Shown piece by piece: positions 21,489 to 41,393 of a DNA stretch of 64,000 bases. The notes under the pieces are model-generated. The model saw nothing but the letters and a program-made list of their open reading frames with translations, made no database searches and was not told the origin of the DNA. Made by a program: the position numbers and the translations under genes. Source of the stretch: Botryotinia globosa (taxonomy: Eukaryota > Ascomycota > Leotiomycetes > Helotiales > Sclerotiniaceae); assembly GCA_014898425.1 (NCBI GenBank), contig RCSZ01000008.1, positions 507,501 through 571,500 of the forward strand. Direction: 5' to 3'. The first letter of the stretch is position 1, and every line of letters begins with the position of its first letter.

Positions 21489-23126
21489 ATGTCTCAAGAT
21501 CAAGGACAATCTGCTTCTAGAAAGAAACATTCCACAGGGCGAGAATGGTCGGCTCACGATACAGCCACCATCGAAAGTATGGTGATTGAGCATCCCCATG
21601 AAGATTGGGAGAAACTCCGAGAATTACACGAGGGAGGAAAATACAAACTCTCACAAAGTTATAGTCCAATATTTGTTCAGAAGGAAGTGACGGCTAGATG
21701 GGGGAAAATCGCCGAAAGGACGGAATTCAGTCCAGAACAATGGATGATCTTGTGTAGAGAACGAGATTCCAAAGATCAGACCCATCGCAGCTACAGTAGG
21801 ATTCGGTTGAATTGTTTTCCAGAATACACGAAGAAAACTCTAGAATTAAAGTATCGAAAGTTAAGTGATGAGGATATAAAATATTACCTAAACGAATCTG
21901 CGGCTAATCAGGCGAAGATTGTTCGAACAGAACCGCCAGGGGGGTATGCTTTGAATATGAATCCAGAAGATAATGCCAAATATGTCTATACCACTTGGCT
22001 TGAAGGCAAGGAGAGGCAAGTGATGAATGATGATCAGTATCTCCACAAATACTTCCTGAAATATGGCTTCAAAAATCTCACCATAAACGGCATAAGTCAA
22101 TTCGTCAGGAAAATGAAGAGAAACCACAAACCAGTGCTTAGCTCTATCCCTGCTGTTCCCACCATGAAAGGTATTTGGTGGAATAGAGAGAATCTCAGTT
22201 ATCTGAGACGTATTGCGGAAGAAGAACTGCAGAGTGTTTTTCACGGAGATTGGAAAAGTGTACTTAAATATCGCTTTGAAGGCTTAGGGCTAAATCAGAC
22301 CATGCTCTCACAGAATTATAATGCTCTACGCTCTGGTAAGGCCGCGGTGGAGATTGACGTGCGGATAAATTCTGCAAATCTCAATCGTGAGAAACAAAAT
22401 AAAGTCTTTAAAATTGTGTGGGACAGTGCAAATGATGATTTTGCCCTAGCATACTACTTGTATCGTAATGGAGAGGAATCTCGCAGTACTATGAGGGCAC
22501 ACGAGGAAGTATTCCTGAAACAACATGATTTTAAAGATACTTTAAAGGACGTATACAACCGTGGCAGCGAACTTAACAAAAGAGGATCAAAGCCAAGCGG
22601 CGAAAAGATAGACCTAAGAGCTGGACGACCGGGAGAATACTTGATAGATTTGGAAGATTGGGAATTTCACGAATGGCTTTGTGATACCTCGGATCAAAAT
22701 CCAGGTGAAATCACAGACCTGATGAAGTATCATATGCCGCGATGTGTGAATGAACCAGCTGAAATATACAGTTTACGGCGACATCTTTGGGATACGACGG
22801 GACGTGAAGATATAGAATGTCCATTGAAATTCACTAGAAAATCTACTCCTAAGATAAGCACAAGCACAAGCAAAAGCACAAGCACAAGCACAAGCACTAC
22901 TCGAACACAGAGTAGTAGGGCAAAACTACCCAGTAGTCGAGAACCATCACAACGAACCAATGTTCACGATAATCGAGACCTTTATGAAGTCACTCCTCCG
23001 CCACCTCGAAAATCATCCCACACAAAGCAATCTGCAGAAAGATATGCATCAGGAGGATCGACAAGCGTAAACAAACCAGAACCAGAGCAGCAAAATCGTT
23101 CTCCGTCTAAATTCCGCGAGACCTAA
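21489..23126 (+). CDS. Uncharacterised protein with tryptophan-bearing SANT/Myb-like repeats (tentative)
   Basis: An intronless frame of 545 codons. I do not recognise the family. The N-terminus has repeated segments with spaced tryptophans and basic helices that recall SANT/Myb modules: GREWSAHDTATIESMV (residues about 17-32), EVTARWGKIAERTEFSPEQW (about 67-86), and GIWWNRENLSYLRRIAEEE in the middle. The last 100 residues are disordered: a hexanucleotide repeat (AGCACA, 22856-22898) encodes an S-T-S-T tract, followed by Ser/Pro/Arg-rich sequence. A nuclear or DNA-binding role is a guess. The stop TAA at 23124-23126 is followed by 65 open in-frame codons of the same composition, so it may be a new nonsense mutation or a readthrough site. 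Confidence 0.6.
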   Translation: MSQDQGQSASRKKHSTGREWSAHDTATIESMVIEHPHEDWEKLRELHEGGKYKLSQSYSPIFVQKEVTARWGKIAERTEFSPEQWMILCRERDSKDQTHRSYSRIRLNCFPEYTKKTLELKYRKLSDEDIKYYLNESAANQAKIVRTEPPGGYALNMNPEDNAKYVYTTWLEGKERQVMNDDQYLHKYFLKYGFKNLTINGISQFVRKMKRNHKPVLSSIPAVPTMKGIWWNRENLSYLRRIAEEELQSVFHGDWKSVLKYRFEGLGLNQTMLSQNYNALRSGKAAVEIDVRINSANLNREKQNKVFKIVWDSANDDFALAYYLYRNGEESRSTMRAHEEVFLKQHDFKDTLKDVYNRGSELNKRGSKPSGEKIDLRAGRPGEYLIDLEDWEFHEWLCDTSDQNPGEITDLMKYHMPRCVNEPAEIYSLRRHLWDTTGREDIECPLKFTRKSTPKISTSTSKSTSTSTSTTRTQSSRAKLPSSREPSQRTNVHDNRDLYEVTPPPPRKSSHTKQSAERYASGGSTSVNKPEPEQQNRSPSKFRET

Positions 23127-23324
23127 TCAAGGGGAACTGCATCTCTTGCACCTCGACCAAGTCCTCCTCGGGCCTCGGATAGCACTGCTAGTAACTCAGC
23201 GGTGAAACGATCTGCTACATCGACTGAAAGGAAAGATGGTATTAAACGGACGAGAGAGGGAACTGATCCACGAACAAAGGTGGTAATAGATAGAAGCCAA
23301 GATACACTCGTCCCGAAATCATAA
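23127..23324 (+). other. In-frame 65-codon extension after the stop of the preceding ORF
   Basis: Directly after TAA the same frame stays open to TAA at 23322-23324. The product is Ser/Pro/Thr/Arg/Lys-rich (LAPRPSPPRAS, KRTREGTDPRTK) like the upstream tail. It is either readthrough sequence or the tail of a recently shortened gene. Confidence 0.6.
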
Positions 23325-23828
23325 GACACTATGTCATTCTAGATTTCAAATTGATGTATCAAGAAACAACATTAAATATCATCATATAAGGCGTATCGAG
23401 CCGCAATCTATATTATCCTCCGCTATCACTATTCCACACATTTTCATTTACATATAGTGATCAAATGCTAGTTCAAGAAGGTCACATCTTGAGTTTAAAC
23501 GTTGGAGCAGTCTGGACTGCCCGCCCTGTATATGAGAAAAAACGAATTGTATTTGCTGGTTACTAATCTGGTACTCCTTCCCATCACATACAGACTTCGC
23601 TCGCGTGATTCAAAAACATTTACATTGTGTGTCTGCATGGCGAAACAAAATCAAGAAGCCAAATGAAAATCAACAGCCAACATCCATCTCCACAACTCCA
23701 TCATCCAAACCGCGATACATGAGAATCCGGGCGCAAGTCAATCTCAGAGTCAAGAGTCTTTCTGATCTGCCAAACCCAAAGATGCTCGACATTTGAGCTA
23801 CGCGCAAGTATAGAGTCTCGCGAATCCC
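23325..23828. other. Intergenic between convergent genes
   Basis: Contains the 3' flanks of the gene at 21489 and of the hydrophobin. Nothing else recognised. Confidence 0.5.
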
Positions 23829-24229
23829 CTATGAATTATCTGGAGAACTGCAAATAATACCTTGGCCCAACTATTCGAGCGATTAGTATCTGCACGCAGC
23901 CAGAAAGGCAGGATAACTCACGAGGGGAAGATCGCAGCACATGTTGATTTTTCCAACAGCTGCGCAGATATGGTTGAAAGATGCTATATCGGTGCATGCA
24001 GCCGGTGCTGTTTGGCCTTGAATTAGTGATTTGCTCCGACTGTGGGAGGAGAGTACATACGAGCTTCGCAGTCTAGATCAGCTATACCAAGGACATCAAC
24101 ATCGCAGCATTGGGGGCTACCGCTGCTGCAGATAGCATCTTGTCGAGATACGAGAGTTGCAGGCATTGCAAAAGCAGATGCGAATAAGGCAGTCATGCTG
24201 ACTATGATGCTGATTCTTGAGAAATACAT
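23829..24229 (-). CDS. Class II hydrophobin
   Basis: Three exons: 24061-24229, 23922-24016 and 23829-23870, with introns of 44 and 51 nt, encode 101 aa. A signal peptide (MYFSRISIIVSMTALFASAFA) precedes the class II hydrophobin pattern: ICSSGSPQCCDVDVLGIADL with DC, then FNHICAAVGKINMCC, DLPL and LGQGIIC near the end. Such proteins are secreted, assemble at air-water or wall surfaces, and coat spores or hyphae. The intron after the final CC block is where class II genes often have one. I count nine cysteines rather than eight; the extra one lies in AACTDIASF between the fourth and fifth canonical cysteines. Short length, signal peptide and spacing make the family call firm. Confidence 0.93.
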
Positions 24230-26421
24230 ATTGAAGAAGGATTTTGTATGATAGATTTGGTCAAAGCAAAGTTATTGTGATGATGATACTGAGAACGAAC
24301 TGATGATGATTGTGAAGAGGAAACTTCTTGCACTTTATAGATTTTTCTGAGCTCGTTCCTGTTAACTCTCCTGGTGGCCAACGTAGGTCAGCCATGTCTT
24401 AGGTCAGATACATGATGTCAGTTCACGAATTTTCTTGATATTTAGCACAAGGTGACGATAACATATAGCATGCTATATCCTATCGTTGGAAGTGATATTG
24501 ATGAGAATAGAAAAAGCAATAACATCCAGGGATATCACATGGTGATCATTCGATAACCCGATTATGTGAAGATGAATATACACTTGGATGGTGATTGCCG
24601 AGGACCAATCCCATGGACTACCATTGGTTCCTGACATATAACATCACCAAGTATGAGCGAGCCACTTCACGGAATGCCGGAATCAGCTTTCCAAGGATAG
24701 CTGGAGAGCCCTGGAGGAGCAGAGAGGGTGGCTTTAGAACCCAAAGATCAGCGACTTGCGCATGATATATTGGTCAACATGGCTCAAGCTGAACAATATC
24801 ATGTGCAGACCAAAATCAAAGGTTTTTTCAAAATTCGAGTGTTAATCAATCAATCATTATCTGTTGTTCGAGTAGGAAAGGATTCTTCCAAAGCCTACGA
24901 TTGATCGGACAGTACAGTTTTAGTTAATTTCAAGCATATCTGTAGCCATAATATCATACATAGGTATGTTTGTTTTCTGAGATTCTCTTTCTTTTTCATA
25001 ATAATTATAGGTTAATGTGCACCGTGCACATGAGTTCGTTCAGCTCGAAGACGGGACGGACGGGACGTAACCGTTGTGGAGAATTCATGATACTACAGCA
25101 GCTAAGCTTCAGGGATCGGCTAGCCCCATATCTCCACGCTTGGCGCGATCATCGTGATATATCGTTGGGATTGAAGTATCAATCGGCCATTTTGTCTTGT
25201 TATACGACGTGCATCCGAGCGACGAATTTCGAGGCAGCTATAGCCTCGTGGGCGATTGAGGAATGATGATGCTTCACGACTTAATCTCGATCCATCTTGC
25301 AATATACTCGTATGAAAATGAGCAAGCTTCATGTATCGGCATAACATATCATCATAACATAACAAGTATCGAAGACCTGGCTAGACGGAGCTTCATATCA
25401 AGGCTATTTTTGGTATGCAGATAGACAACCAGTCTTGTCAGAAGAGAAACCATGCCTGCTGCCAAGCAAGGAAAGATCCGATTTTGAAACTCAACCATGT
25501 CACAAACATGCAATATCATGTTGAATTATAGGAAAGGTCCAGAAATTGCATTTCTTGGTCGGCGTGTGGCAAAGGTCTTGCTCAGGTACAGAATTCTTGA
25601 CAATAAATAGGATTTGTAGGCCATGCTGGTAAAAAAAATATCTTGATAAGTCAACAAATTTCACTGATTTACATTCGCGTGGGAAGGAGATCATTATTGA
25701 ACGAGGACGACATTTTCAAAGACTGGTCGAGAAGGATTTGACGTCGAAGCTAGTCGCACTTTCGCATGCAGTGGGTAACCTTAGCTTACTTTTAAAGTCA
25801 CGCATTTATCACGTGAAAGAACCTTTCTCGACATCCTAGCCACCACATCGGAATTTTTTATCTCCCATTGTAACTCGAACCAAATCGTTGGCCAACTTAG
25901 CAAGCCTTGATAGAATGCATACAAAAGGGAATTGGTAATGCTAATCCCTAGATTGGCAGGCGCTCGATGAACAAGCTTAAACGCTGACAGCCCAACGTCA
26001 CTTCATCCATTCAACATGACAGAAATTGAAGTCAAGACCAGTATCTATTCTCTACCTAACACTATTCATCATCGTTCGACTAGGGAGTCTATTTCTACTC
26101 CCTATAATGAAATTGATGGTGCTTCGCGGGATGAATCATAGAACCGATGACCTTTAATGTTCAAATAGTCGAATATTTATCCGCCGTTCCTCCCGCCTAA
26201 CCAATACTCCAATTCTAAATGTTCAATAGCAGAGGGCTTAATGTGAGAGCCATATCAATTTATAGCATTTCTTCTCATCCAAACAAAAGACAGACTTTAT
26301 TCCCGCTTCTCGTTGTCTAGCTGCAGAATACAGAGGTTGATGATAAGTCAAAACGACATGCCAAAGTTTGTGCAAAACATTGTTTCTGTATGTCCTGAGA
26401 AACAATGAGATTAAAACACAA
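24230..26421. other. Intergenic, 2.2 kb
   Basis: The left part is the hydrophobin upstream region. Short frames (for example 24970-25266 plus) show no domain or coding-like composition. Nothing else recognised. Confidence 0.5.
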
Positions 26422-26931
26422 TTACCCCTCGATGCCGTACAGCTTGTTTCGGAACTCTCCTTCGTACAAATTTTCGTGTACCAGTACCTGCTTCGCCATC
26501 GTATTCTTGTGTTTTTCTTCCTCGATTTCCAATTGCTTATTCTTCTTATCAAAATCACAAAGCTCGCGCTGTAACTTTCCAACCTCCAAGAGTGTCTGTT
26601 CCTTCAGCAAGACTTGCTCCTCTTGTCGTAACGCTGCAATTTGTTGTACATGTTTCTGAATCTTTATTTGAAAGTCTTCGATTTGCTTTTGGTGTGCGCG
26701 AATGGCATATTGAGCTTGCGCAAGTGTGTCTTTGGATTGAGTGGACTGTTGGACGATGGCCTCGAGTACTCTGAAATCGGACTGCACGGTGGTATGTTAG
26801 TCAAATGCGGAAGTTTTTTGCAAACAATGAAGAGGAAGAGTGTAAAGCGTAAAGGGCGGGTTGCATAATGGGGTTGAGCTTACCATTTGTTCGGCATTTC
26901 TGCATGCCACTTCGTTGTTCTTGGGCTTCAT
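26422..26931 (-). CDS. Coiled-coil array, copy A
   Basis: Exons 26884-26931 (16 codons) and 26422-26781, with a phase-0 intron GTAAGC...GTGCAG, give 135 aa. Almost the whole second exon is a heptad-rich helix (QYAIRAHQKQIEDFQIKIQK, then ALRQEEQVLLKEQTLLEVGK), ending in a short Tyr/Gly tail. There is no signal peptide or membrane segment. It is the most downstream copy of the array and intact. Its ALRQEEQVLLKEQ resembles the ELKQEEEVILAIQ of copy D, which supports common origin. Function unknown; oligomerisation through the coiled coil is likely. Confidence 0.68.
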
Positions 26932-27924
26932 GGTTGTAGCTTGGGAGTTGGAGTTTGAACTTGTAATTTGAGGTGCTTAACTTTTAAACTCTCAAAGTAT
27001 TCAGGATCATAAAAGCTTTTGATGTCGGAGGCGCATGGAATGAAGACCGAGGAATGACTCAAGGAGAAGAGGAAGTAAAAAAGTAGGAAAACATTGAGGT
27101 CAAGATCGACGAATGTTCACATGTTGGAGATGTGAGTTGTATACTGGAAGTGATTATTCCTTATTCAAAGTTTTCTTTTCTGAATACTTTTTGGGTCTGG
27201 GTATCTAAAATGGACAACTCAGTAAATGACTTCGCAATGTTATTCCCAGTTATTGACCCACATTTTGTAAAATATCATCTAAGCGAGGGCAGTGAATGAA
27301 GTATGTATAAAGTGAAGATATACTCCCAAACCAATCACCACCAGACTCCACCCGCTCATCCAAAAAAAAATCACAATCACCACCAAAAGATGAATGAGCT
27401 TCCTTAAAAAGGATAAAACAAAAAGGTGGTTGTAACAACACCATCCCCTGATTAAGAGACTCTTGATGATGAAGTCAGGCGCTCAGACTAATGGACGCTG
27501 GCCGAAGAGTGAGAACCATTGGCAGAACACATCGTTAGAAACGCTTTTGTGAAGGCTTTTCGCGTACTTGGAATATATATTATGGTAACATCACGCCGCT
27601 ATACTAATGGATGATGATAGCACGGGAAGGGAGTTACCGTCACTGCATCAATGTGGAAGTAAGAGAATGTTTTAGGCAGTTAAATTTCATTTTTTGTTAT
27701 TATTTGAAATGTATTCCATCGTTAAATTTCATTTCTGCGACCGTTCGCATGTTCAATTTCATCGTTTGTGATGATCAATGTATCTTGTATCCAGCTCGAA
27801 AGCGCCGTCTTTGACCCCGATGTCTGAGGCCTGATGGCGCGGAAATTTTAGTATTGGCTCATGAGGAATGAGGATTTAAGATCAAAAGAATCATAAACAT
27901 CAAAGCATGAGAGCAGCAACTTAC
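26932..27924. other. Spacer between array copies A and B
   Basis: No exon recognised. Short frames such as 27250-27444 minus lack support. Confidence 0.45.
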
Positions 27925-28452
27925 ACAGCAAAGTAAAAGACCTAGCCCAAAGCCAAACCGGTTTACAGTCACTCTCGTTTCTTCCATCTTCCTCTACCTC
28001 CTCCAAATCAGAAAGCAATCCCGCTTTCTCTACTTCAGTCCTCAATTTATTGTTCAACTCCTGCTCAAAATTTTCCATTTGCTTTTGAATATTTTCGAGC
28101 TTTGCCGCCTTTTCCTTGCAATCCGTATTGTATTCCTCAAAATCTCGAATTTTTTCTTCCTAGTCAACATTTTCTTGTCTTAGCTTTCGGATGCGTTCTT
28201 CACAAATACGAATATGCTCATTGTTATCTTGGAGATGGAACCATCGAGAATGAATAGATTTCTCGCTCGTTGTGGCGGATTGTGCTTTGATCTGGATAAA
28301 GGGCTCATCAGTCGCTCTTCACGTTGGTATAGAATTTGGCGTCGTATTGAGATAGGAGTTTTGATGTTTGAATGAACTACCTCTTTGGAAGCACTATCTT
28401 TGTTCTTTCCAGAGTTTCCAGTCATCTCGAAAGCACTTCTTTTTGGTGGCAT
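27925..28452 (-). pseudogene. Coiled-coil array, copy B (one nonsense codon)
   Basis: Exon 1, 28381-28452, has 24 codons starting MPPKRSAFEM, the same exon length as copy D and the motif shared with C and D. A phase-0 intron GTAGTT...TCCAG leads to 28291, where a Glu/Lys-rich coiled coil starts (NEHIRICEERIRKLRQENVD). The TAG at 28160-28162 interrupts it. The frame then continues unbroken with EEKIRDFEEYNTDCKEKAAK and on to a GTAAGT donor at 27919-27924, so a third exon may have followed. A single C-to-T or G-to-T change could have made the stop. I call it a recent pseudogene, or an allele-specific null. Confidence 0.65.
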
Positions 28453-28796
28453 ATTTACAGTCTGTCTGATACTGAGTTTTATGTGGAAGTTGAGTGTGTT
28501 TGAGAAGAAAGGAGATCACGGAGTTCTGAGGAAGATAAATTGTAGAGGAGAAGATCTAGTGAATATCGAGAAAGAGCAAAGAGGACTTGGACAGTAAAGT
28601 CACTTTCTAAATTTGAAGTGTTGATTTCCGCTGAAGTCAAGTCAAGTCTAGATGATAGATGTAACATCCCCCCATTCCCACGCATGACTTCTGGCTCTAC
28701 TGCTTGTTGCAAGATCTGTTGATGAGGTAGTGTTAGCATCAAGTCGTAAAGGCAGGATAAATGATTCGTCGGAAAGCGGATCTATGACTTACACAA

Positions 28797-29416
28797 TCAG
28801 GCATTGCCTCCATTCCCCTGATTTTCCACCTTTATCTTTTTCTGAGATGAAATCTCTGCCTCGTCCTGTCCCTTCTCAATCATCGCATCCAATTCCTTCT
28901 TTCCAGACTTTAAGAGTGTCTTCAAAAACTCCTCTCCCGGGTCTTGGGCCGCCAGAACTAATTTCTCCTTTTCTTTGAGTTCACTGATTTCCACTCTGAA
29001 TTCTTCAAGTCTTTGCTCAACACATTGTAGGTTTCTTTGCCTTCTAACAAGTCTCCCTTCGATTTGTCGGATTTCATCCTCGTCTCTTGCAATCTCAGAT
29101 TTTACGGCCGTGGCGTGCAATTCGAGGAGTGTAGAACTTTCTGTTTTGTTATTGATACATCTTTGACATTCTGTGAGCGCTTGTCTGACCTAAGAATAAA
29201 CGCAGTGTCAATTGTAGAGTCAAAACGATTTGAGTATGACAACGAATAAAGATTAACTTTGCTGGCCTTCAGGAAGGGGTCATCTAGCTCAGTCTTGCAG
29301 ATCATTTCGAGAGCGCTTCTTTTCAAGGAAATTTTGATAGTAGACATACTGCCAAGCTTTGGGGTTGAAGTTGAGGATTTTCGACGTTTTACTATTTGTG
29401 AAGATGAGGAGATCAT
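28797..29416 (-). CDS. Coiled-coil array, copy C
   Basis: Exons 29258-29416 (53 codons) and 28797-29189, joined by a phase-0 intron GTTAAT...CTTAG, give 183 aa. Exon 1 has a Ser/Thr/Lys-rich extension followed by the array motif LKRSALEM. Exon 2 is a long helix (EIARDEDEIRQIEGRLVRRQ, then LEEFRVEISELKEKEKLVLA), ending in a basic/acidic tail. The first ATG is used; an internal ATG at residue 24 would give a form closer in length to copies B and D. Four bases after the stop lies a GTAAGT donor. No domain beyond coiled coil seen. Confidence 0.66.
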
Positions 29417-29756
29417 GGGTGTCAAACAAAATAGTGTGAGAACAGAAGCAGCTGATGAGATTTTTTCTGGAGACTCGATTAAAAGGACAACGCTAATGCA
29501 AATCTTATCTTTGAAAATTGAAGTAAATAAAAATGAGGACTTGTATTATCATTAATAAAACTCTAGCGAAATGAAAGCTTGACTGCAGTATATATCGCTA
29601 TAACAGCCGCAAACTTTCCCTATCCCATTCCCAGACAAATCGTCTTCCGCTTCAAATCTGAAAACCTAGAAGCAGAAAGAAATTAGTCTTGACAACATTT
29701 AAACCCGATACTTCATGCATTTGAAAAAATAGTGACTTACATTGCATATTATAGCT

Positions 29757-30344
29757 CTAAATCTCATTTTTGATCATCATCTTCTTCTCTCCATCACCCA
29801 CAATCTTCTCACTCTGATCTTCCTTGCCCTCCTTCTCTAGCGACAAACTCGCCTTCTCCAACTTCCCTTCCAGAAATTCCGTCATGCCTTCCTGCACAGC
29901 TCTCTGCAACTTCTCTTCACGGACTTCTCCTTGCTTTTGAATTGCCAGAATAACTTCCTCTTCCTGTTTCAACTCCACAATTTCCTGTCTGTTCTTTTCG
30001 ATATCTTCCTTGTACTCTTTATTTGTTTGCTCAAGTTCTCCCACAAATTTCTGAGCATTCTTGATGTATTGTTTCCAAATTCTGATATCCCTTTCATGAC
30101 GTGCGATGATTATACTACTGTGGCGAATCAAGGACCCAAACTCTCCAGTTTCATTATTACTGAAAGAGACTTTGTCTGCATTCTCTTTGAGCATCTCTTT
30201 TATCTAAATAGAGAGTAATTAGAGAGATCTATGGCATATAGATATGGGAAATTTATATTATAGATTACTCACTCTCTTCAGTTGACCACTCTCGGCCTTT
30301 CCAGAGCTTTCCATCATTTCGGGGGCAGTTCTTTTTGGAATCAT
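29757..30344 (-). CDS. Coiled-coil array, copy D
   Basis: Exons 30273-30344 (24 codons) and 29757-30203, joined by a phase-0 intron GTGAGT...TTTAG, give 172 aa. The start MIPKRTAPEM aligns with copies B and C, and exon 1 has the same length as in B. Exon 2 is a long heptad-rich helix (ERDIRIWKQYIKNAQKFVGE, NRQEIVELKQEEEVILAIQK), then an acidic Lys/Glu-rich C-terminus. The product is soluble and strongly charged. A GTAAGT donor follows the TAG stop by 16 bases, as in C and E. It is the clearest intact member and a good query for finding relatives. Confidence 0.7.
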
Positions 30345-30825
30345 GTTGAGAATTGGGAGATAATACCAGGCTGAAACTTTGATACAAGGTGGATTTTTTT
30401 AGATAGCTTGAACACGTTGGGGAGTATCGTCTGCTTGGACGTCGGAGAATTTCAGGATTGTGGATATTGTGAGAAGTAGATGGAGAGAGTGTGACTTTAA
30501 GTGGGTGCAAGCTGAGATACGTAAATGGAGGAAATTTATTTCACTTTCAAGAGCGAAGCTAGAATCTATAAGAGTACTGGTCTGCATTCAAAGAAGTCTA
30601 CCCTAGTTCTTAGTTTTTGGAGGGCCGTGTATAGTCATTAACGTCGACCTCCCCTCTGCAGTGTAATGACCATGATCTCCACCCGCAAAATGAATCACTA
30701 ACCCGCACTTGAAATCCTTGGATCTATTCGTTCTGTATGAAAGAAATAATAATTAGTATCTGATGCTAGAAGCGAAGACAAATAAACCGACAGCCGGAAT
30801 GAAAATGGTTTCACACAACATACCC

Positions 30826-31291
30826 TCACGCGTTTTCTTTAGCCAACTCTTTGTCCGCCAAACTCTCCAAATGCTTTAGTACCATCTCACCAACGGCAAT
30901 AGAACATGACAATTCCATCTCGAGATCCTCTCTAAGGCTTTTGAGCTCCACCATGGTTTGTTTGGCGTGTGTCAACCCTCTACGAAGACTTGGCTCCAGC
31001 CTCTGCCTTTTCTGGTGAGAAGCCCGTTGATACTTTTCAACGGACAATTGGCTTTGCTCTTCGAGATCACGAATGGATATTCTAACCTTACGGAGACTCA
31101 TGGTGACTTTTTCGCTTCTTTCTTGGAAGATTGGCATCATGTGAAATGTTTGGGCCTACAAGGGCGGATTAGTATTATATCATGTAGACGCAGAGGAAGC
31201 GCGCTCGCTGGAAATATCAGCGCCTGCATTTACTCACAAAATTTAATGCACTGAGTTCTACAGCTAGGTCTGCGGCAGTCATTCCCTCCAT
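30826..31291 (-). CDS. Coiled-coil array, copy E
   Basis: Exons 31238-31291 (18 codons, MEGMTAADLAVELSALNF) and 30826-31155, joined by a phase-0 intron GTGAGT...TGTAG, give 127 aa. Exon 2 is helical and basic (KVRISIRDLEEQSQLSVEKY, KQTMVELKSLREDLEMELS) and ends KELAKENA. The KRSA motif of B-D is absent, so kinship rests on gene structure, strand and composition. A GTATGT donor-like site sits two bases after the stop. Function unknown. Confidence 0.6.
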
Positions 31292-31574
31292 GTTTGCTAA
31301 ATGAAGTTCGAAGATGGGATTTTGGGTGGAGAATTCGAGAGGTTTAAAGATATCAAAATCTTGATGTGAGTACCTAGGCAGGTATTTTAAGATATTTTCC
31401 AAGTAAAAGATTACTTAGCGAAAGGTCACAAGTCCAATATTCACTGAAAGCAATATACATTGAAGATTTTCAAAATTATATTGACTTTTGAAAGTTAATG
31501 GCATGCAGAAAATGATTGATATTCACTTCTTTATACCAGAGAGGTACCCTAAAATAGGTACTCTTTGCAGTCTT

Positions 31575-32010
31575 TTATTTCTCCATCAAATCCTCAATTC
31601 GCTTCATACATGCCTTCTCGATGGTAATGCACTCTTTTATCAACTCATTGACTTCCTTTTCACCCTCCTCCCCGGCAGCATTCATTTTATCAAGTGTTCC
31701 CATGATGGAGGTTATAAGGTTTTGATTCTGTCTTCGACATTCTGGAGGAAAAAAGTCGTACATTGCGATTATAGAGCGAACCTTTTCTTCTGACTGACGA
31801 GAATTTGTTCTGGCTTTTGCGATTAAATCGACATGTTCTTGAGTTTTGCTTTTTGCCACTGGTAGGAACCCACTTATTACTTGGTCCTAGGTAGATAACA
31901 TAAATTGGATTTCATATATACAAGGAGAATGATGAGGAGTACCTGAGTTTACTTATGAGAGCGGGTGTTCCAATATTTGCGATCATTTCAGATACCTCAG
32001 GTGATAACAT
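31575..32010 (-). CDS. Coiled-coil array, copy F (splice model uncertain)
   Basis: Exon 1 from the ATG at 32010 (MLSPEVSEMIANIGTPALIS) ends at a CAG|GTACTC donor at 31943. The frame is kept if the acceptor is the AAG before 31872, giving exon 2 at 31575-31872 and 121 aa. The better-looking CTAG acceptor (exon from 31886) would shift the frame, so this copy may be mildly damaged. Exon 2 is helical (KTQEHVDLIAKARTNSRQSE, MGTLDKMNAAGEEGEKEVNE, KACMKRIEDLMEK). It would be the only array member without a phase-0 intron, itself a sign of decay or of a wrong model. Confidence 0.5.
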
Positions 32011-33829
32011 TTTGCCTTTTCTGACTGTGGATCAGAATCTCCGTGGTGTCTTTGCGAAGGTGAAGAAGATGTTGAATGCTGTTCTCGATCTGGTATGTTG
32101 AGGGTATGAGTACTTAACTTGGTTGTTGAGTCAGTTAACGATCTCTGATTATCAGAGAAATTGAGGCATACATAAGGATCTTAAAGCTTTTAGCGCGTCG
32201 CTAGCTATTAATAATCTCAGTCACATGAGTGCACCGACGTTCGGGGGACAGTGAATTATTGCAAGAGATTTAGGGTGAGCTACCAAGCTATGCATATTGG
32301 CCTTTCAGAACCTTGGGAATGAAGGTCGTGTTCTGTTGTCGTAGGTGAGAATATACAAGAAGGACTAATAGAATAACGCATATAATCGCCCAATGACCTA
32401 CGGTTTTTGTGAGTTACGAAACTCATTTTTTTGTAAGCTCCAGAACATATGGAAATCAAGAATTTACTGGGATATGGTTCCAAAGTTCCTCACAATGCAT
32501 TAATGTAACCTCTCCATCACTCCAGAAATTCCGGGAAAAGCCCATAGAATATGTCTATCAACACAATGTGACATTGCCATTCTCCTCACTACCTCTATTC
32601 CACTAGACGAAATCCTCCCAACAATCAGACCCCCAACCCTTCCCAAATCACCACACCCACTCAATCTTCCTCTTCTTGTCTGATCAAACATACATTTTTC
32701 TCAAACATCACTCCTACCTCGAGATCGAAGTATTATTCAAGCTAATCTCCGTCTAACAGCCTAAAATAAGCGAATTCTTGGCGCCTGAAGACTAGCGACT
32801 AAGCAAGATGATAAAGATTTGCTGATGTAGATTTGTCTTCGAGGGGATGCTGAAGCTCTGTTTAAGAACCAAGCACCGATTTCATCGGTTGAATTTCTTG
32901 TGGGAGTCTAAGGTAGGGGACCTCCAGTTTTTTTTATCAGGAAATGATGATTTAAATGAAAAAATTGTTATTTTAGAGAGGTTTATCCTACAGTAAGTCA
33001 AATAGACATAAACTGCTATGCATGAGCTTAAGCGCGATCTTCTATTTATTTTTTCATACTTCCATGGATCTGTCGCGTGGAAAAGGAGCGGCTCTCCATC
33101 TGTGTTCTTTCGTCCGCCACTTTATTCATCATCGCTTTCTCTTGTATTCAAAATTTACCGCTTGCAGTTATTACAGAATCAAACTCTATCCAGAGAAGCT
33201 AGAACTACTTTCTCAAGATTTCTAAAGCCCACTGGCGTACTTCCAGTGATCTATCCGCGTCTGACCTGGACCGGCTCTAGTTTTTTTTTTTTTTTTTTCA
33301 AAAGTCACAACCAAAGATCATGTAAATACATTCCATATACACAGAATGAAGACCTCTAAGGTATGTATGTATTATTATTGCTCCAACAAACAGTAAATAT
33401 TCGCCCAGATGAGTTTCTTCAACCTTTCTGTCACGTGCCAGAAAACTTTGACAGTTCTTTGTTGCATGTCTGCTACAGGCGGTTGGAGCCCATAAGCCCC
33501 CTGTAACTTTCGGGAAATGACCCTAAAGATATTCCTAGGAAATTTTCTTTTCTTTTCTCTCCGATGTCAAATCGAATCCCGCCATTTCCATCTCCGCTGC
33601 CACTTGCCTGCGGTCTGCGATCCCATCTATGTACGCACATGTTCATCACAACTGCACTCTCAGTAAAAAAGCAGTTCCGCACCTAAAATTAGGACATGTC
33701 AAAAGCAAACTGTTTCATACGATGATAACTATCCAGCGCCAGTATCTTATCCTAGCCCAGACTCCCAAGCCATATCTTGTTTCGCAGCCTCAGCAACCTC
33801 GCAGCCTTCCAATTCTTCCCAGAACTTCT
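32011..33829. other. Largest spacer inside the array
   Basis: No coiled-coil exon found on either strand. Frames at 32500-32691 and 33473-33682 (minus) and 33018-33359 (plus) have no recognisable domain. It could hold a deleted copy. Confidence 0.45.
33281..33298. repeat. Homopolymer of 18 T
   Basis: Uninterrupted T run in the spacer between array copies F and G. Confidence 0.9.
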
Positions 33830-34098
33830 TTAGTTCCCATCGCATTGCAACATCACCTCCTCAACAACACTTCGCAAATACTCAAGAGCCAAACTTGCTC
33901 TCGCGATTGCGACTCTTTGGCGCCAACGACGGACTGTTTCTACCCTCCATATTCGACGTTGTGCCTCGCCTCGTTCAAATTCCTCATCCTGTAGTAAGGG
34001 GTCAATAGTTAGTCCTGAATGAGAGAATTGAAAGTACAGGGAAAAGAGCTTACCTCTTCTGCTGATTGAAGGTCTTGCTCATAAATATTGGGATCCAT
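33830..34098 (-). CDS. Coiled-coil array, copy G (short, possibly frameshifted)
   Basis: Exons 34054-34098 (15 codons, MDPNIYEQDLQSAEE) and 33830-33988, joined by a phase-0 intron GTAAGC...CTACAG, give 67 aa, among the shortest in the array. Exon 2 is an Arg/Glu-rich helix (RGEAQRRIWRVETVRRWRQR) followed by LALEYLRSVVEEVML. Past this point another frame continues with helical, acidic sequence (WELKKFWEELEGCEVAEAAK) for about 30 codons, which suggests a one- or two-base indel removed the original C-terminus. The LEYLRSVVEE stretch resembles the LENLRNLVRE end of copy H. Confidence 0.5.
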
Positions 34099-34313
34099 TT
34101 TCCAGATGTGCAATAGATTTGTTGTTTTGTGGTTACTTATGATTCCCGGCTGTAGAAGAACTCGTATTCGTATTCGGATATGTAGATGTTAAGAAAGAAA
34201 GACGGATCTTGTAAGAGAAGCAAACGCTTTAAATGATAAATGAGCGGGTAACGATCGACCGTAGTGTGGGGGCATATGAACCAATTCGCATTCTTCCAAT
34301 CAATAATACCACA

Positions 34314-34623
34314 TCATTCCCCAGCTTCTCTGACGAGATTGCGCAAGTTTTCCAGAGCTCTGATTGCTGATATCAGAGCCAATTCTCTCTCTATCTCGGC
34401 AACTCTTCGAACAATCTCGCGCGCCATTTCTTCAATCTGTCTCATAAGTTCGATTAACGATTCATCGGGGGTTTCGGTTGATGAGTCTTGAAGATCTCTA
34501 ACAGCTTGATTCTTAGAAATATGTATTAGGTCTGGTTGTGATGTGAAGGAAGGTAAGGAAAAGGCTGAAGCTTACAAGTCTTGTAACTTGATCATGTAGC
34601 CTAGTAGTGCTGAGATCCGCCAT
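34314..34623 (-). CDS. Coiled-coil array, copy H
   Basis: Exons 34576-34623 (16 codons, MADLSTTRLHDQVTRL) and 34314-34511, joined by a phase-0 intron GTAAGC...TCTAAG, give 81 aa. Exon 2 is acidic and strongly helical (ESLIELMRQIEEMAREIVRR, VAEIERELALISAIRALENL) and ends LVREAGE. The second exon has no ATG near its start, so the gene is visible only through splicing. Intact; function unknown. Its C-terminal helix resembles that of copy G, suggesting G and H are sister copies. Confidence 0.6.
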
Positions 34624-34914
34624 GTTGGATGGAAACGAATTCTACCAAGCCAAAGACAATCTACGTAAACTTTGGATTGTAGAAGGTGGAAGTTCCTAGG
34701 TATTGTTAAATATGGATAATAAGAGTTCCCGAGTTCGATGAGATTATGTGGCTTTCGAGAGATTGTGGGGTAGAATACCACCTGCATACATAAGTAGGAA
34801 GTTTGACGTCACGTTATGTGCTGGAGAGAGCAGATATACTAGTTATAGTCATATGCCTTCACTTTCCATGACTGAATTTGTTTTCAGAGAAGATATTTAA
34901 AGTTATATTATTTA

Positions 34915-35372
34915 TCACCTATCATAAATTGGAATTTTATTCCTCATAGATGTCTGACAGCGCAAATCGAAGTAAGTATGAGATATCTTACCTTGCAAGC
35001 AAGCCCAAGCAGCTTGATGAAGCAAGTATGCCTTTCTTTCCGCCTCGATTCTCTCTTCATCACTTATTCCCTCTGCACACAAGTACCACGATAAGTAGTA
35101 CTTGTAACAAGCCAGTTGACCACTCGAAAATTTGATCAATCTTCTGCAACTTCTGACCGTATAGTCTTCTTCTTGAGTAGCAACACCAGAGGCCATGATT
35201 TGTTTGATTTGGAGTGTATTCTCTTTGATTTCATCTCCGGTATGGTTGATTCTGATAAGTATCTGGGAGAGATATGGTTAGAATGGCTTGATATCGATCT
35301 GGGAAGAGATTTCAGTGTGCGCCAACTTACGTTCATGATTTCGTATTTCTTCTCCTCGATTCTGGAAGGCAT
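34915..35372 (-). CDS. Array copy I, helical but Cys/Tyr-rich
   Basis: Exons 35331-35372 (14 codons, MPSRIEEKKYEIMN) and 34915-35262, joined by a phase-0 intron GTAAGT...CCCAG, give about 129 aa. The second exon is helical (GDEIKENTLQIKQIMASG, then SDEERIEAERKAYLLHQAAW) but has more Cys, Tyr and Trp than its neighbours (LACYKYYLSWYLC). A GTAAGA donor after CLQ at about 34990 means the last 25 codons may be intronic, with a further exon not found. Gene layout matches the array; sequence kinship is weak. Confidence 0.5.
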
Positions 35373-35790
35373 TTTAGGGTTATTATAGCGGGTTGCGTTA
35401 CTGAGAAGTTGTATCTTGATCTGAGAGGTTTGGTAAAGACTGAGGTAGGATCTTGGACTTGAGCTGAGAAGGTGAAGTATCTGGGCAACTTCGAGACTTG
35501 GAGGAAAATATAGCTCGCTAAATAAAGGATTCCATAGTTTCACTTCAAAGTTACGAGCAAACATACACGAATCTAGGGACTGATATCGATGAAAGACGGG
35601 AAAGTGCTTGATATTTATTGTCATTCTTCAGATGAGAGACTGAATGTCACATCATATGGGAAATCCTTGCTCGGCACCCTCTAGAACACTTTCCCCAAGC
35701 GCAAGCATCATTGTTGTGACCCATAACCCTTTGAATCTATGCGAAATGCTCAAATCAGACTGATAATGACACAAATCTCAGCATAAATCA

Positions 35791-36179
35791 TCAATACTCC
35801 CAAATGCTCTGTTCCTCAGTATCAAGAGTAGTGTACTGCGAGAGAGCCTTTTCTACTTCCTCCAGATGTGCGACACATTTGAGATCCATCTCCTTAACAT
35901 GTTCCACCCGCTTCTCCATATTGCCGAGACCTTTCTTCAATGCTTCCAAAACGGCGACATATTGAAGTCGTTGGCAGCAGGTTCCCGTCATCTCTATTTT
36001 CATTTTGTACCACTTAAGAGTTTCGATATCTTGTTGAATCCGAGCGAGAAATATGGCGAACTCGTTGCGTAATTGGACAAATTTGGAGCGCTGGTTTTTC
36101 TATAGGTATCTTATTAGTATAAAGAAACGAAAAGGTTCATGTTTTAACCTACCATGTTTTGGAGGGCTGTTGGAGGCAT
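35791..36179 (-). CDS. Coiled-coil array, copy J
   Basis: Exons 36153-36179 (9 codons, MPPTALQNM) and 35791-36099, joined by a phase-0 intron GTAGGT...TATAG, give 111 aa. Exon 2 is a continuous helix with a Cys-Cys pair (QLRNEFAIFLARIQQDIETL, TCCQRLQYVAVLEALKKG, GNMEKRVEHVKEMDLKCVAH) and an acidic end EEQSIWEY. The N-terminal MPP is shared with copy B. Intact; function unknown. Confidence 0.6.
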
Positions 36180-36874
36180 TCTTGATGTTGGTATCGAATC
36201 AAAGTTTTTTGTGTAGAACTTTGACGAAGTTGTGAATATCTTCGAGGCAAGGGTTCAAGAGGGTTTATATGTTTTTGGATCTGTGATAAGCGATCTCTTC
36301 ATGGCAGGGAAGCAGACTGAGAAAGATTCACTGCCAAAGATTAGAGCCAATCGTTATAGCAGCTTTTTCTTTTATGAGCAGATTTACAATTCACTGTTTA
36401 TTATCAGAAAACGGAAACATTTGAGACAGCATTGAACACTGAAATCATGCAAAAGAATCCTACTTCACATACATCCTGCATCTAAATCATGCTTCATAAA
36501 GTTCTCTCAGCGCTACATTCAACCTCTTTGTGACTTCATTTCTCTCTGGAATTCTAGCATGAGTATGGTCAATGACAACTTTTTCTTTATTTTCATGGGC
36601 GTCTTGAATCCTAGAAGTTCTTTTCCCTACCTACCTAGGTAGACCTCCCATAAAACCAGACCTAAAACGTAGGTCTGCACTTTGTATCCTGCCCCAATCC
36701 CGTATTCAGTCCTTGTATCATACCCTCTCTATTCTGTGACCGGTGATACCATGTTCAATGACTTGGACAATTAATTATCAGTAATTCTCTTTAAACCCAG
36801 CGCACAGTAATGAGTGGAAGAAACCAGAAGCTCGCCGGTCAAAAATCAAGGTGCCAACCCAGAACTTACTTAGA
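36180..36874. other. Spacer between array copies J and K
   Basis: No exon recognised. Contains a short CTACCTACCTAGGTAG-type partial palindrome near 36628-36645. Confidence 0.45.
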
Positions 36875-37244
36875 TCATGACCCTTTTACCTTCCCTTCCT
36901 TGTTGCTATCATCGTCTGCATCTCTATCTTTATCTCCACTGCCAGGACCAACTAAAGCACAACAATCTTTGTGCTCAGCACCCGCCTCCTGTAGCTTCTT
37001 CGTAATATCCTTCAGTCGCTCTTGAATCCCCTCCAGCTCTGAGATGTGCCTGTCATTCTTTTGCTTATGCTGCCGAAGCTCTTCTTGTGTTGCTCGTATT
37101 TGCTTGTTCAAGTCAAATGCGTTTTGATCGAAGTCCGCGCAGGTTTTTTTCTTCATTGAAATTGTTAGTGGATCTCCATGTGATCGTGAAAGAGACAAGA
37201 TTAAAACTTACGAAGCCATCTTCAAGCTCTAGCGATTTAGACAT
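36875..37244 (-). CDS. Coiled-coil array, copy K
   Basis: Exons 37212-37244 (11 codons, MSKSLELEDGF) and 36875-37150, joined by a phase-0 intron GTAAGT...TGAAG, give 102 aa. An in-frame upstream ATG at 37310 would add 22 residues; the nearer ATG is chosen because array first exons are short. Exon 2 is a textbook heptad helix (FDLNKQIRATQEELRQHKQK, HISELEGIQERLKDITKKLQ), then a Cys-Cys and a Gly/Asp/Lys-rich tail. Intact; function unknown. Confidence 0.62.
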
Positions 37245-37958
37245 TTTTGTGGATCCGTGAAATCGAGACTGATTTTGGTTGTGTAAATATCCCTTGGTTG
37301 GTGTATTCATGTATTAAATTCGAAAGATTTCCGAATTAGCTTTGATGTGGTGAGAAAGTGAAGTGAATAAATATTTATTGAGTGAAGAGTAATATTGTTG
37401 GTCCATGCAAGCCATAGAAAAACAATCATTTTTTGGAGTATTAAGCATAGAAGTATTAATCTGACAATGATATTCACAAAGAATATCAGAGGACAAAGCA
37501 AAGTTTGAGGCCCTTTATATATATCTTGAGCTCCTACTCTTCCATATTTCTGCGGTCTCCTCCCAACAGATTACACTGCCTACGACCAGATGCTTCCATC
37601 TAGACTCCAAAGCCACGAACATATTAGGACATATATATTGCTCCACTGTTGGTATCTTCTTTTCTATAAAGAGACAAGAAGTTAGCATAACCACAATCTA
37701 GACCACTCAGCACCTCATACCTTTTCCGAACAGCAAAGAGCTTAATCTGGTGTACCTGATTTTTGACCCTGGTCCAGTAGTTTCATACAGGGAAATCGTG
37801 TTCTCTGCTGCATCAAAGCTAGTGCATATTAATTCAGGTCCTCATTTGTCGTATCTAGTCTACTCAAGGTTCCACTTTCTGTCGAGACATACAGAGATTA
37901 GTATATGGTCAGAGTAGTATTTAGTATGGAGTGTACCACTTGACTTGAGCTTGGGTCA
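37245..37958. other. Spacer between array copies K and L
   Basis: No exon recognised. Confidence 0.45.
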
Positions 37959-38759
37959 TCAAATCCATAGATATTGGGGAGAACATACGATTCGAGGCTC
38001 ATGTTTGCCGCCAATATTACCACGTGGAGTTTCCGAGCCTAACAACTCCGCCAGAATAATCTTCTTGACTTTTTGAAGCAAATTTTCCTCGTACGATGCA
38101 AGCTTCTCGCCTAATTCACGCTCTTGGCTTTCCATCAAAATTGATTGATATAAAGCTGACTTCTCGTCCAACTCGCGCTCTTGATTCTCAATTTTAGATT
38201 TTTGAGACTTCAAATCTAACCCGATAGATTGAATGCATGTACTAAGTTTTTTTATCGAGAAATCTTCTTGGATTTTCAGCCTGTCCTCTGGTAACTGGAT
38301 ACTCTTTCTTATCTTGCAAGCTTCTGAAGAGATCCTCTGTCTTATATTGCTTCTCGTAGCAGCTTTCGAAAGACTTCAACGTTGCGATGTGAACATCGTA
38401 CGACTTTCGAGCCCCATCATAGCTCTGAATGACCGCCTTTTGATTTTGCTGATTGAGCTCTAAAGCATGGACACGCGAAGCTTGTAATTTCAGGTTGTGT
38501 TACAAACTTGCAATGATATTCTCATGGCCCAAAACCCTATTCTTCAGTGCTTTGTTGAATTGTTCGACATTTTTGATGCGATTGACCAGTGCGGGCTGCA
38601 AGAAAAAGGTTATCAGCTATATTCGCTACCAAAAATGAAAGCAGGTAAGAATCTCAACAAAAGACATAATACCGGTACATATGCCCGATGAATCAAAGTC
38701 ACGGAATTTCTCGGTCTTGCCGTAGCACCAAGAATTGCAGCTCTCTCTAATTCCTGCAT
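37959..38759 (-). pseudogene. Coiled-coil array, copy L (nonsense and frameshift)
   Basis: Exon 1 from the ATG at 38759 (MQELERAAILGATARPRNSV...) ends at a GTACCG donor and is phase 0 to an acceptor TTGCAG at about 38597. Exon 2 begins PALVNRIKNVEQFNKALKNR, meets TAA after HENIIASL (about 38505), continues in frame with helical sequence (RVHALELNQQNQKAVIQSYD), then shifts frame near 38325 and ends as a Lys/Glu coiled coil (KSKIENQERELDEKSALYQS) with the stop at 37959. It was the longest copy (about 270 codons) and is now dead. Its two similar SQERELGEK/NQERELDEK blocks are an internal repeat. Confidence 0.65.
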
Positions 38760-39419
38760 TATAGCGGTAGCGGATCTTAGAAAATTGGAGGTTTGGGTTT
38801 AAAGTGCTGGATGATTTGAGATATGCTCTCATCTGTGTACTTGAAAATGTTGAGAGACAAGTAATCAAATCGATGGATACAAGACTTACGTTTTCTGTAC
38901 AATTAAAGACCTAAGATGTGAGGGTTGAAGCTCAAAGGTCAATGTGAGCGGGAAGGTTTGTTTTTTGTGCGAAACGGAGGATGAATGAGACCAGGAGATG
39001 AAATCATGATGATTGTAAGCGCGATAGAAATTTATCTCAGCTTGAATTGGAAGGATCACATAGATCTCTTGTTTCTAAGTGACGGCTCCTGCCTATCTTA
39101 TTATTATCACATACCAACTGCAGTATCAAAGGGGAAGGAACGAGTGTGTCCGCCATACCACCAAATGACTTCCAATTGTCTTTGCCAAGTGCTCGAAAAT
39201 TCATACTTTGCTCCAGCCAAGATAATCACTAGTTGGTGAAACAAAAGACTCTATACGTATAACCAAAACAAAATCAACATTTTATCTCCAAAAATAAACG
39301 TATTGCCAACTCGTCTTTTCGCTGACCTACCATTCTCGAGCTTTCGTCCCTCTTGTCCATCAAAATCACTCGAGTCATTATCGTCCTCATTTCTCAACTA
39401 TACTCGAAGAAGTCGTGCA
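38760..39419. other. Spacer at the upstream end of the array
   Basis: No exon recognised; the frame at 38985-39239 plus has no domain. Confidence 0.45.
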
Positions 39420-40195
39420 TCAAGGCCTTTGATGTTCACTTCGAGAACAATTTGACCTCATCCAAATTGGATGATCCAATTCTGCCAGAATAGTGCTGTT
39501 AGCCTCCATGCCATGCTTCTTCTTCCCCAATTCAATAATCTTAGCCCTTTCTGCTATCGAGTCTTTTGTAAACGTGAATATTCTGACCCCAGAATTTTTG
39601 TAACCAGTAACTGTTCATCATTAGACGACTGACCAAGCAGGAGCTAGAACATATTCAAGAAAGTACCTTTTTCCGGACCACTGACTGTCCCGTCCTCGGT
39701 CAAGTAATGGAGGAAACCTCCACGTGTCACTAGAACAATATGCTATGCTTCAATCACATAGAGCCATGCCCGAAAAGCAGCGGCTCGTGCTTCGACGGCT
39801 TCATGATTAGGTGCATAGAAGTCTTTCTGGAAGATAACACAGATATTTGGAACCCCTTCTGGTCTCCCTTTAATATAGTACTCTCCAAAAGTAGTAAAAT
39901 CATTACAGAAACCTTCAAATTCCATCTATACTCCATAAAATCGAAACCAATCTTCTCCGCGCCAAAGGTCGATATCTCATCCTTGAACAGTTTGGGAATT
40001 TCTACACCCCTCAATGTATCCAGTGAAAACACTATATCACAAGGTTTTACGCTAAGCTCCCTAGCATCGAGTACTAGAAGAAAAGGAACGGCAAGTGTAC
40101 CGCTAAATTCAAAAAGGGTGATTTCAATGGCACGGCAATGGGGTGATGAAAGGATTAATTGAGTTAAAATTGGATCTGGAATGTGAAATCTGCGC
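39420..40195 (-). pseudogene. Decayed gene of unknown family
   Basis: The minus strand holds protein-like sequence broken by a frameshift and a stop: EFSGTLAVPFLLVLDARELS, GVEIPKLFKDEISTFGAEKI and GFDFMEY in one frame; EFEGFCNDFTTFGEYYIKGR and KDFYAPNHEAVEARAAAFRA in another after about 39925; a TAG at about 39741; then VTRGGFLHYLTEDGTVSGPE, an intron-like GTACTT...ACAG, and VRIFTFTKDSIAERAKIIEL to TGA at 39420. The mixed alpha/beta character differs from the coiled-coil array. I recognise no family and found no first exon. Confidence 0.45.
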
Positions 40196-41393
40196 TGTGA
40201 TGGGGATCAGCATATGAGTGAGGTATGTACGGAGAAGCAAAACAAACCTTGATATTTTGTCTTCAACCTCAGCGTGTCGAACAAGATACAGATTTGGAGG
40301 TATTTTGAGGGTAATGAATTAATCCAGATCATGTTAAAATTGAAGTTGATGCTGTAAGAAGAAGTCAATAATGATAGCCGGGAATAGTATATCATGAACG
40401 AAGAGACCTATCCAGAGCGCATTGTTCACTTCACACCTGCCTGTGATTGACTGCTATTGAACCCTACCTTATGAACTTAAATGGGGCATTTTATTCGTTA
40501 GATAAAAGCTTCATATGAGTGGGGTCTGCTGCCAGCATTCATATCCGCGTATACCTTCGCCCATTTGTGGTAGAACCCGAATTTTCGACAACGTCATGCA
40601 TGATACAGCTTCGCTTGAAGGCTTATCACAAGCATTCGTCCAGAACTTTCCATCCGAAGGTAAATAATCTGGTGATATATCTGAATACATGAAGTTGAAG
40701 CAGTCGGTATGTTCAAGAGAGGTTACAGGCGACGTCGACGTGAAGCAAACGATGGCGGAAGATGTGCACGGACCATTTAACTGCTCTTACCACTCAAGTC
40801 TCTTTTTCCTCATTATGATAATATCTTTGCCCTTGGCGATTAAAGACCATCATTCCATCAATAAGATGGATGATTGTCGACTGCATGTGTATCCCTAGAT
40901 GTTCTCCTTCTAAATACTAGACGAAAATTGGATCTTACATATATACCAAGGCTATCCTAATCGTCTAGTTTCTACACGCGACACGAGATACGAGACGAAA
41001 TGACTAGTATGTATGCGAGGTACACATCTCCTATTCCAGCAAGCACTCCTGTCATACTATCAAAATGGCCGATCAATCCATATCAAAAAGGTTGTTTCCC
41101 ATTCTTTTTATCAATTGATAAAAGTTCTCCTTTCCACAAATCTTACCAATTAGTTGGTCGGTCGTTTCTTTGTGTCCCCTGTCGATATGACGTTATGCAC
41201 ATTAGACAGCATTGGCACCAAGATTTTACAAACATATGAGCCGCGTCGGTGGGTTTGCAGCGCGTATTGAAGCGATAGGTAATATATTGTTGGATAAATT
41301 GAATGTTTCTTACATCTTGTAGCAAGTCCCTCAATATCTACTTTCTTTCCTGACTTTCTCGTTCAATTTACTGGTAAAAGCATCAGGAACACT
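40196..41393. other. Intergenic, nothing recognised
   Basis: Contains the probable promoter of the carrier gene at 41394. No other feature seen. Confidence 0.5.

What the first reader, a model, noticed from the sequence alone, without database searches (positions are those of the whole stretch)
26422..38759. Tandem array of about twelve divergent small coiled-coil genes with one gene plan
Twelve units (A-L) lie on the minus strand over 12.3 kb. Each has a first exon of 9-53 codons, one intron close to the start (phase 0 in all but the uncertain F) and a single helical, mostly heptad-rich second exon. B, C and D share an N-terminal KR(S/T)AxEM motif, and B and D have first exons of exactly 24 codons; A and D share an L-x-QEE-x-V-L core; G and H share L-E-x-L-R-x-x-V-x-E. 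Sequence is otherwise strongly diverged while gene structure is kept, as expected for a locally duplicated family under fast or diversifying change. I know of no described family like this. Possible roles (self/non-self recognition, effectors, chromatin or cytoskeletal adaptors) are only guesses.
Basis: partly seen in the sequence, partly recalled or inferred. Interest (0 to 1): 0.82.

Follow-up and report, generated by a model that had tools for sequence, protein, structure and literature searches.

The report
Botrytis-only cluster of small helical genes
In this grey-mould relative about a dozen tiny genes of unknown function stand in a row, and most of that row is found in the same order in other Botrytis species; two sets among them are old duplicates, some copies are decaying, and none clearly belongs to a protein family of known function.

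Summary
The window is Botryotinia (Botrytis) globosa. Units A-K have relatives in other Botrytis species, and locus tags follow the window's order on every contig that could show it (six contigs of other species with three or more tags). A, D, H and I also occur in B. cinerea, so at least these predate the 16-18 Myr split of the genus. L was found only here. B is broken (frame change, stop); F has lost its old splice donor.

B, C and D are one duplicated family (KR(T/S)AxEM start, long helix); E and F are a second pair with the same 18-codon first exon. A probably belongs with D; G-H is weak; for I, J, K and L kinship is not shown. B, C, D, H, K and F have helical periodicity above shuffles; I is modelled as a compact three-helix bundle. 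Diversifying selection could not be tested.

Best explanation: an old, vertically inherited tandem cluster of intracellular, non-enzymatic helical binding proteins, some copies dying. No Pfam, PDB or fold match gives a function. A sound genus-restricted orphan cluster, not a new kind of system.

The parts
26422..26931 (-). Unit A, 135 aa, 16-codon first exon, phase-0 intron of 102 nt
   Evidence: model; 8 relatives at 65-80% identity
27950..28452 (-). Unit B, broken copy: first exon intact (24 codons, KRSAFEM), second exon with a frame change and an in-frame stop
   Evidence: an intact relative exists in B. narcissicola (P0077)
28797..29347 (-). Unit C, 160 aa, KRSALEM start; deposited as EAF00_006008
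29757..30344 (-). Unit D, 172 aa, KRTAPEM start, modelled helix 40-155; deposited as EAF00_006009; B. cinerea relative BCIN_11g01480
30826..31291 (-). Unit E, 127 aa, 18-codon first exon; deposited as EAF00_006010
31575..32010 (-). Unit F; relatives have an 18-codon first exon and a phase-0 intron; in the window that donor is no longer GT; deposited as EAF00_006011 (108 aa) with another first exon
33830..34098 (-). Unit G, 67 aa
   Evidence: 5 relatives, 79-88% identity
34314..34623 (-). Unit H, 81 aa, the best conserved; B. cinerea relative BCIN_11g01510; zipper-like helix
34990..35372 (-). Unit I, core of 104 aa; its B. tulipae relative is modelled as a three-helix bundle; a further small exon is possible; deposited as EAF00_006014 (129 aa, running on to about 34915)
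35791..36179 (-). Unit J, 111 aa, 9-codon first exon; the tags seen (I 006014, K 006015) leave no number for it in the B. globosa record
   Evidence: relatives in B. galanthina, B. hyacinthi, B. paeoniae
36875..37244 (-). Unit K, 102 aa, 11-codon first exon; deposited as EAF00_006015
37962..38759 (-). Unit L, uncertain: my two-exon reading stops after 60 aa; deposited as a 204-aa model with more splices (EAF00_006016); no relative returned from another species

Best explanation
An old, vertically inherited tandem gene cluster of Botrytis that encodes small, probably non-secreted, mostly helical proteins without enzymatic signature. Shown: genes A-K exist in several Botrytis species in one order; B-C-D and E-F arose by duplication; B is broken and F damaged in B. 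globosa. Inferred: the proteins act as binding or scaffold proteins through their helices. B-C-D would carry a disordered basic N-terminal tail (KR(T/S)AxEM, with a second KR cluster in D) that could serve nuclear import or partner docking, and would dimerise through the long helix; H would self-assemble as a short zipper; I would be a compact bundle. Duplicates kept side by side may form mixed oligomers. The nuclear site and the mixed oligomers are guesses.
For: Relatives of each of A-K from 15 other Botrytis/Botryotinia species taken together, and one relative (of D) in Stromatinia cepivora: of the 77 different proteins returned, 68 bear an organism name, 67 of them Botrytis/Botryotinia (7 being B. 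globosa itself), 9 are unnamed. Locus-tag order agrees with the window on 15 of 15 contigs with two or more units, one being the window's own; six contigs of other species with three or more tags are informative. Seven public models that fuse neighbours (D+C, E+D, F+E, J+I twice, I+H twice) join them in the window's order of transcription. B-D: hhalign 98%, 0 of 200 column shuffles reach the score; C-D: 90%, 0 of 200; E-F: z 7.7, 0 of 200, with equal 18-codon first exons. B and D first exons are 75% identical in DNA over 51 nt. D model (12 sequences): residues 5-18 and 154-172 under pLDDT 50, 51-140 at 94-98 by blocks of ten. Model of I's B. tulipae relative: pLDDT 88. No unit's first 35 residues hold a 10-mer as hydrophobic (best 1.47) as the secreted-type ORF at 24 kb (2.38).
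Against: hhalign alone gives E-F 4.5% and G-H 6.5%, inside the reversed control (best 22.2 bits); B-C directly reaches only z 2.3, 5 of 200. No shared upstream motif. In one B. cinerea strain protein (P0016) the KRTASxM motif is scrambled, against a strict need for it. The KRxAxEM DNA pattern occurs at seven further places in the genome, one with an ATG four codons before it. D's pTM is 0.38 and no dimer was modelled; two of five models of I scored only 67 and 58. I saw no expression evidence for any unit. Hydropathy is not a test of secretion.
Confidence: 0.5

Rival explanations
1. A run of mostly unrelated orphan genes. Only B-C-D(-A) and E-F are duplicates; G to L arose independently, perhaps from formerly non-coding DNA, in a permissive gap between conserved genes, and share look and intron by general fungal gene habits.
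For: No pair with a member in G-L passes both tests. Of 66 pairs six exceed z 3 (B-D, E-F, C-D, H-K, A-D, C-K), but two reversed controls do so as well; in hhalign no pair with a member in G-L exceeds the best reversed control. The I relative is modelled as a bundle, not a coil.
Against: Twelve of twelve on one strand, short first exon in all, phase-0 intron in eleven of twelve models and in F's relatives too; that phase 0 makes up about half of fungal introns is recalled, not measured here.
Confidence: 0.4
2. A self/non-self or genetic-conflict locus (allorecognition, or a drive element with antidote) whose paralogs diversify and die.
For: Mixed pace between units, broken B, damaged F, doubtful L, and two B. 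cinerea forms of D that differ by stretches that look out of frame (P0009, P0016).
Against: Order is stable across species; G, H, I and K are well kept; no domain of known recognition or toxin proteins above cut-off in the Pfam scans.
Confidence: 0.08
3. Kinetochore or spindle accessory proteins, fast-changing as taxonomically restricted essential coiled-coil proteins often are.
For: The Dad3 model is matched by 5 of 5 H relatives scanned and by H itself, but weakly (best E 0.0054; H 17 bits against a cut-off of 23.1). PMC5633384 (title, start of abstract and passages seen) reports that essential restricted genes of yeast and worm often act in chromosome segregation and hold more coiled coils than non-essential ones.
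Against: Below cut-off; unrelated coils score better: the H profile matches a trimeric adhesin fragment at E 2.8e-6 and GCN4 variants.
Confidence: 0.05

Closest known systems
Species- or clade-specific small fungal genes; PMC3158057 (passages seen) counts about 2,600 species-specific genes in B. cinerea or S. sclerotiorum, many coding for small proteins without functional domain
   Same: Small, without functional domain, limited to a genus or family as far as searched
   Different: Here about eleven stand together in one kept order, and two sets are demonstrable duplicates
Taxonomically restricted essential coiled-coil proteins of yeast and worm (PMC5633384; title, start of abstract and passages seen)
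   Same: Coiled coil plus disorder (D)
   Different: No role in segregation and no essentiality is shown here
[not shown]
   Same: Arrangement of three helices in the model
DASH complex subunit Dad3 (PF08656) for unit H
   Same: Short helical protein, weak profile match
   Different: 17 bits against a cut-off of 23.1
DUF2203 (PF09969) for unit K
   Same: Helical stretch; one K relative at 24.2 bits, cut-off 24
   Different: The window's K has 18.7 bits; function of DUF2203 unknown

Membership tests
B-C-D family (KRxAxEM, this report) | Shared N-terminal KR(T/S)AxEM in exon 1 and profile similarity over exon 2 | tested here: met
   motif in B, C, D; hhalign D-B 98%, D-C 90%, C-B 54%; z 10.9, 6.5, 2.3
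B-C-D family (KRxAxEM, this report) | Unit A belongs as well | tested here: inconclusive
   A-D 28.6 bits against reversed maximum 22.2, 28.5% probability; z 3.2, 0 of 200; A has no KRxAxEM
E-F pair | Sequence similarity and same intron site | tested here: met
   z 7.7, 0 of 200; 18-codon first exon in E and in F's relatives; hhalign alone 4.5%
One family A-L | All units demonstrably homologous | tested here: inconclusive
   only the pairs above pass; G-H 4 of 200 and 6.5%
One family A-L | Short first exon and phase-0 intron | tested here: met
   11 of 12 models, and F's relatives
Dad3 (PF08656), unit H | Score at or above Pfam's gathering cut-off | tested here: not met
   17 bits, cut-off 23.1
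DUF2203 (PF09969), unit K | Score at or above Pfam's gathering cut-off | tested here: inconclusive
   window's K 18.7; of the 12 other K relatives scanned one reaches 24.2, three are listed at 20.7-22.9, eight are not listed for it at E<=0.001
BAR domain, unit I | Fold match clearly above other helical bundles | tested here: inconclusive
Secreted effector | N-terminal signal peptide | tested here: inconclusive
   only hydropathy was computed; no signal-peptide predictor on hand
Gene family under diversifying selection | dN/dS above 1 | not testable with these tools
   no DNA of relatives could be fetched

The most novel reading that the evidence does not exclude
All twelve units descend from one gene, and the cluster encodes a Botrytis-specific set of mutually binding helical proteins (a combinatorial coiled-coil code) used in recognition or genetic conflict, with copies continually diverging and dying.
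Probability: 0.08. Interest if true: 0.78.

Novelty: new member of a known kind. Interest (0 to 1): 0.42.

Why it matters
Orphan genes are usually studied one by one. Here a compact set of about eleven has kept its order between Botrytis species, some members since before the two clades parted (16-18 Ma in PMC8379374, passages seen), yet it contains provable duplicates, conserved and fast members side by side, and fresh decay. It is a ready test bed for how orphan families are born and lost, and one deletion in the laboratory strain B. cinerea B05.10 would ask what the whole set does. Searches of main texts for B. cinerea gene names from BCIN_11g01460 to 01540 found no paper (supplements were not searched).

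Tried and rejected
Known families: Pfam scans gave nothing above cut-off for the window's units or for the relatives scanned, except one K relative that just reaches DUF2203; scores are printed for the first member only and the others are judged by their best E-value (0.0021 or weaker). PDB sequence searches with the D, I and H profiles gave 20, 0 and 46 rows at E<=1, best 6m6z_A at 0.0014 for D and the adhesin fragment 2wpr_A at 2.8e-6 for H, read as generic coils (the other nine units were not searched there). Foldseek gave no match at E<=0.001 for the I and D models. No RNA family above cut-off and no tRNA in the window.

Paralogs elsewhere in the genome: proteins of ten of twelve units (A, C, D, E, I, J, K themselves; B, F, H by a relative) gave no place outside the cluster below E 0.02, the best being C7 at 0.026 for C. 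G and L were not searched. This is weak: the same searches with D and C did not list each other either, so diverged copies elsewhere are not excluded.

Shared promoter: k-mers of the 400 nt upstream were no commoner than in shuffles. Codon usage against long ORFs was uninformative; antisense frames often scored higher. KRxAxEM pattern: 10 places in the genome against 2 for the backward control; beside B, C and D there are seven, one of which (C7) has an ATG four codons before it inside a longer open frame; I take them for chance (at most 80 residues upstream were shown).

Papers: gene-name searches gave 0, a B. globosa synteny search 0; some searches gave background listings. Seen: PMC6417074 passages and section 14; PMC8379374, PMC10971195 (not used), PMC3158057 passages; PMC5633384 title, start of abstract, passages.

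Count notes: one search leaves out rows of 99% identity or more, which drops the closest H relative (B. byssoidea) besides the window's own; its L row is the window's own annotation. One search used at most four sequences per unit. Contigs with a single tag were left out.
Full report
What was checked. I read the region and modelled each unit. All twelve lie on the minus strand. All modelled introns begin GT and end AG; a CTRAY branch-site motif begins 17-32 nt before the acceptor in ten of twelve (C and F lack one). H needed another acceptor than my first choice, 14 nt further up, which brings its motif to 18 nt; the B. tulipae protein settles it.

Where it is. A search with a C-D profile returned the window's own C and D as EAF00_006008 and EAF00_006009 of Botryotinia globosa, plus relatives. 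Searches with two mixed alignments returned E, F, I, K and L of the same record (EAF00_006010, 006011, 006014, 006015, 006016) and relatives of the other units (assigned). Over the three searches 77 different proteins came back; 68 are named, 67 Botrytis/Botryotinia (16 species with B. globosa) and one Stromatinia cepivora. Both genera lie in Sclerotiniaceae. Word-based searching misses distant relatives, so absence from Sclerotinia is not shown.

One order. Locus tags give the window's order on all 15 contigs with two or more units, one of them the window's own; two-tag contigs cannot disagree, and six contigs of other species have three or more tags (B. narcissicola 7, hyacinthi 6, galanthina 6, byssoidea 6, tulipae 5, aclada 3). 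That tags follow position is an assumption. Seven public models fuse neighbours (P0007 D+C, P0012 E+D, P0021 and P0045 J+I, P0023 F+E, P0032 and P0035 I+H); different pairs are joined in different species while the same units stand alone elsewhere, so I read them as gene-caller merges. Nine other Botrytis genomes were annotated by ab initio prediction with B. cinerea models as evidence (PMC6417074 passages and section 14); if B. globosa was done likewise (assumed), the models are no independent proof of transcription.

Age. A, D, H and I have relatives in B. cinerea (P0062, P0009, P0063, P0033) and K, like A, D and I, in B. calthae (P0049). These two species form clade 1 (PMC6417074 passage), and the two clades parted 16-18 Ma (PMC8379374 passages). 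So at least A, D, H, I and K are older than that; for the other units it is likely but not shown.

Are they one family? Pairwise alignment put C-D first. Profile comparison gave D-B 98%, D-C 90%, C-B 54%, D-A 28.5%; everything else was under 10%, and the best reversed control reached 8.8% at 22.2 bits (B-E stood at 22.7 bits). Column-shuffled means gave B-D z 10.9, E-F 7.7, C-D 6.5, A-D 3.2, each with 0 of 200 shuffles reaching the score, H-K 3.7 and C-K 3.1 with 1 of 200 each, B-C 2.3 with 5 of 200; reversed controls exceeded z 3 twice in 66. I accept B-C-D and E-F, the latter also for its equal 18-codon first exon, call A-D likely, and leave the rest open.

Decay. In B the first exon is 88% identical over 25 residues to the B. 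narcissicola protein, but the second exon matches in two frames and holds a stop. In F the place of the old donor reads AT. L is uncertain. Intact relatives of B and F exist (P0077; P0025, P0026).

What the proteins look like. D: disordered N terminus, short helix 21-35, helix 40-155, disordered end. The B. tulipae relative of I: three helices, pLDDT 88, pTM 0.76, from six sequences, though two of five models scored 67 and 58. H: zipper-like, matching trimeric adhesin stalks (best E 2.8e-6) and GCN4 variants, which I read as generic coils. K matches coiled-coil families weakly; one relative just passes the cut-off of DUF2203. The most hydrophobic 19-residue stretch of any unit averages 1.15 (F), below the customary membrane-helix limit of about 1.6, which is recalled.

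Pace. Median identity of relatives to the window's unit, with the number of relatives: H 91 (7), G 85 (5), E 83 (3), B 83 (1), I 82 (8), F 81 (3), K 79.5 (10), A 72.5 (8), J 69 (3), D 65.5 (12), C 54 (3). No baseline from ordinary genes was available.

Flanks. Of nine ORFs scanned, seven have a Pfam family: amidoligase, GH53, 3-beta-HSD-like, membrane transporter, CPL, TPR and Nup120; two have none.

Verdict. Its kinship claim holds for five units, probably six. The function stays unknown; the most likely role is non-enzymatic binding by helices inside the cell.

Noticed in passing
window 21489-23350, + strand: A 545-aa single-exon ORF without Pfam family ends at a stop, after which the same frame seems to go on with a coding-like stretch (read by eye); possibly a shortened gene.
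   Followed up: no
window about 23880-24240, - strand: A cysteine-rich reading with a signal-like start resembles a small hydrophobin; the resemblance is recalled, not tested.
   Followed up: no
window 38950-40450, - strand: Between L and the transporter gene lie only short stop-free stretches on this strand, the longest 150 codons; it may be a decayed gene.
   Followed up: partly
P0009 and P0016 (B. cinerea): Two B. cinerea forms of D differ by stretches that look frame-shifted, one of them over the KRTASxM motif.
   Followed up: no
window 3-3179, - strand: ORF with an amidoligase domain (PF12224, 70.6 bits) in a GC-richer stretch (0.57 in 1-2000).
   Followed up: no
P0043 (B. elliptica, K relative): Just reaches the Pfam cut-off of DUF2203 (24.2 against 24 bits); probably coil-driven.
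   Followed up: partly
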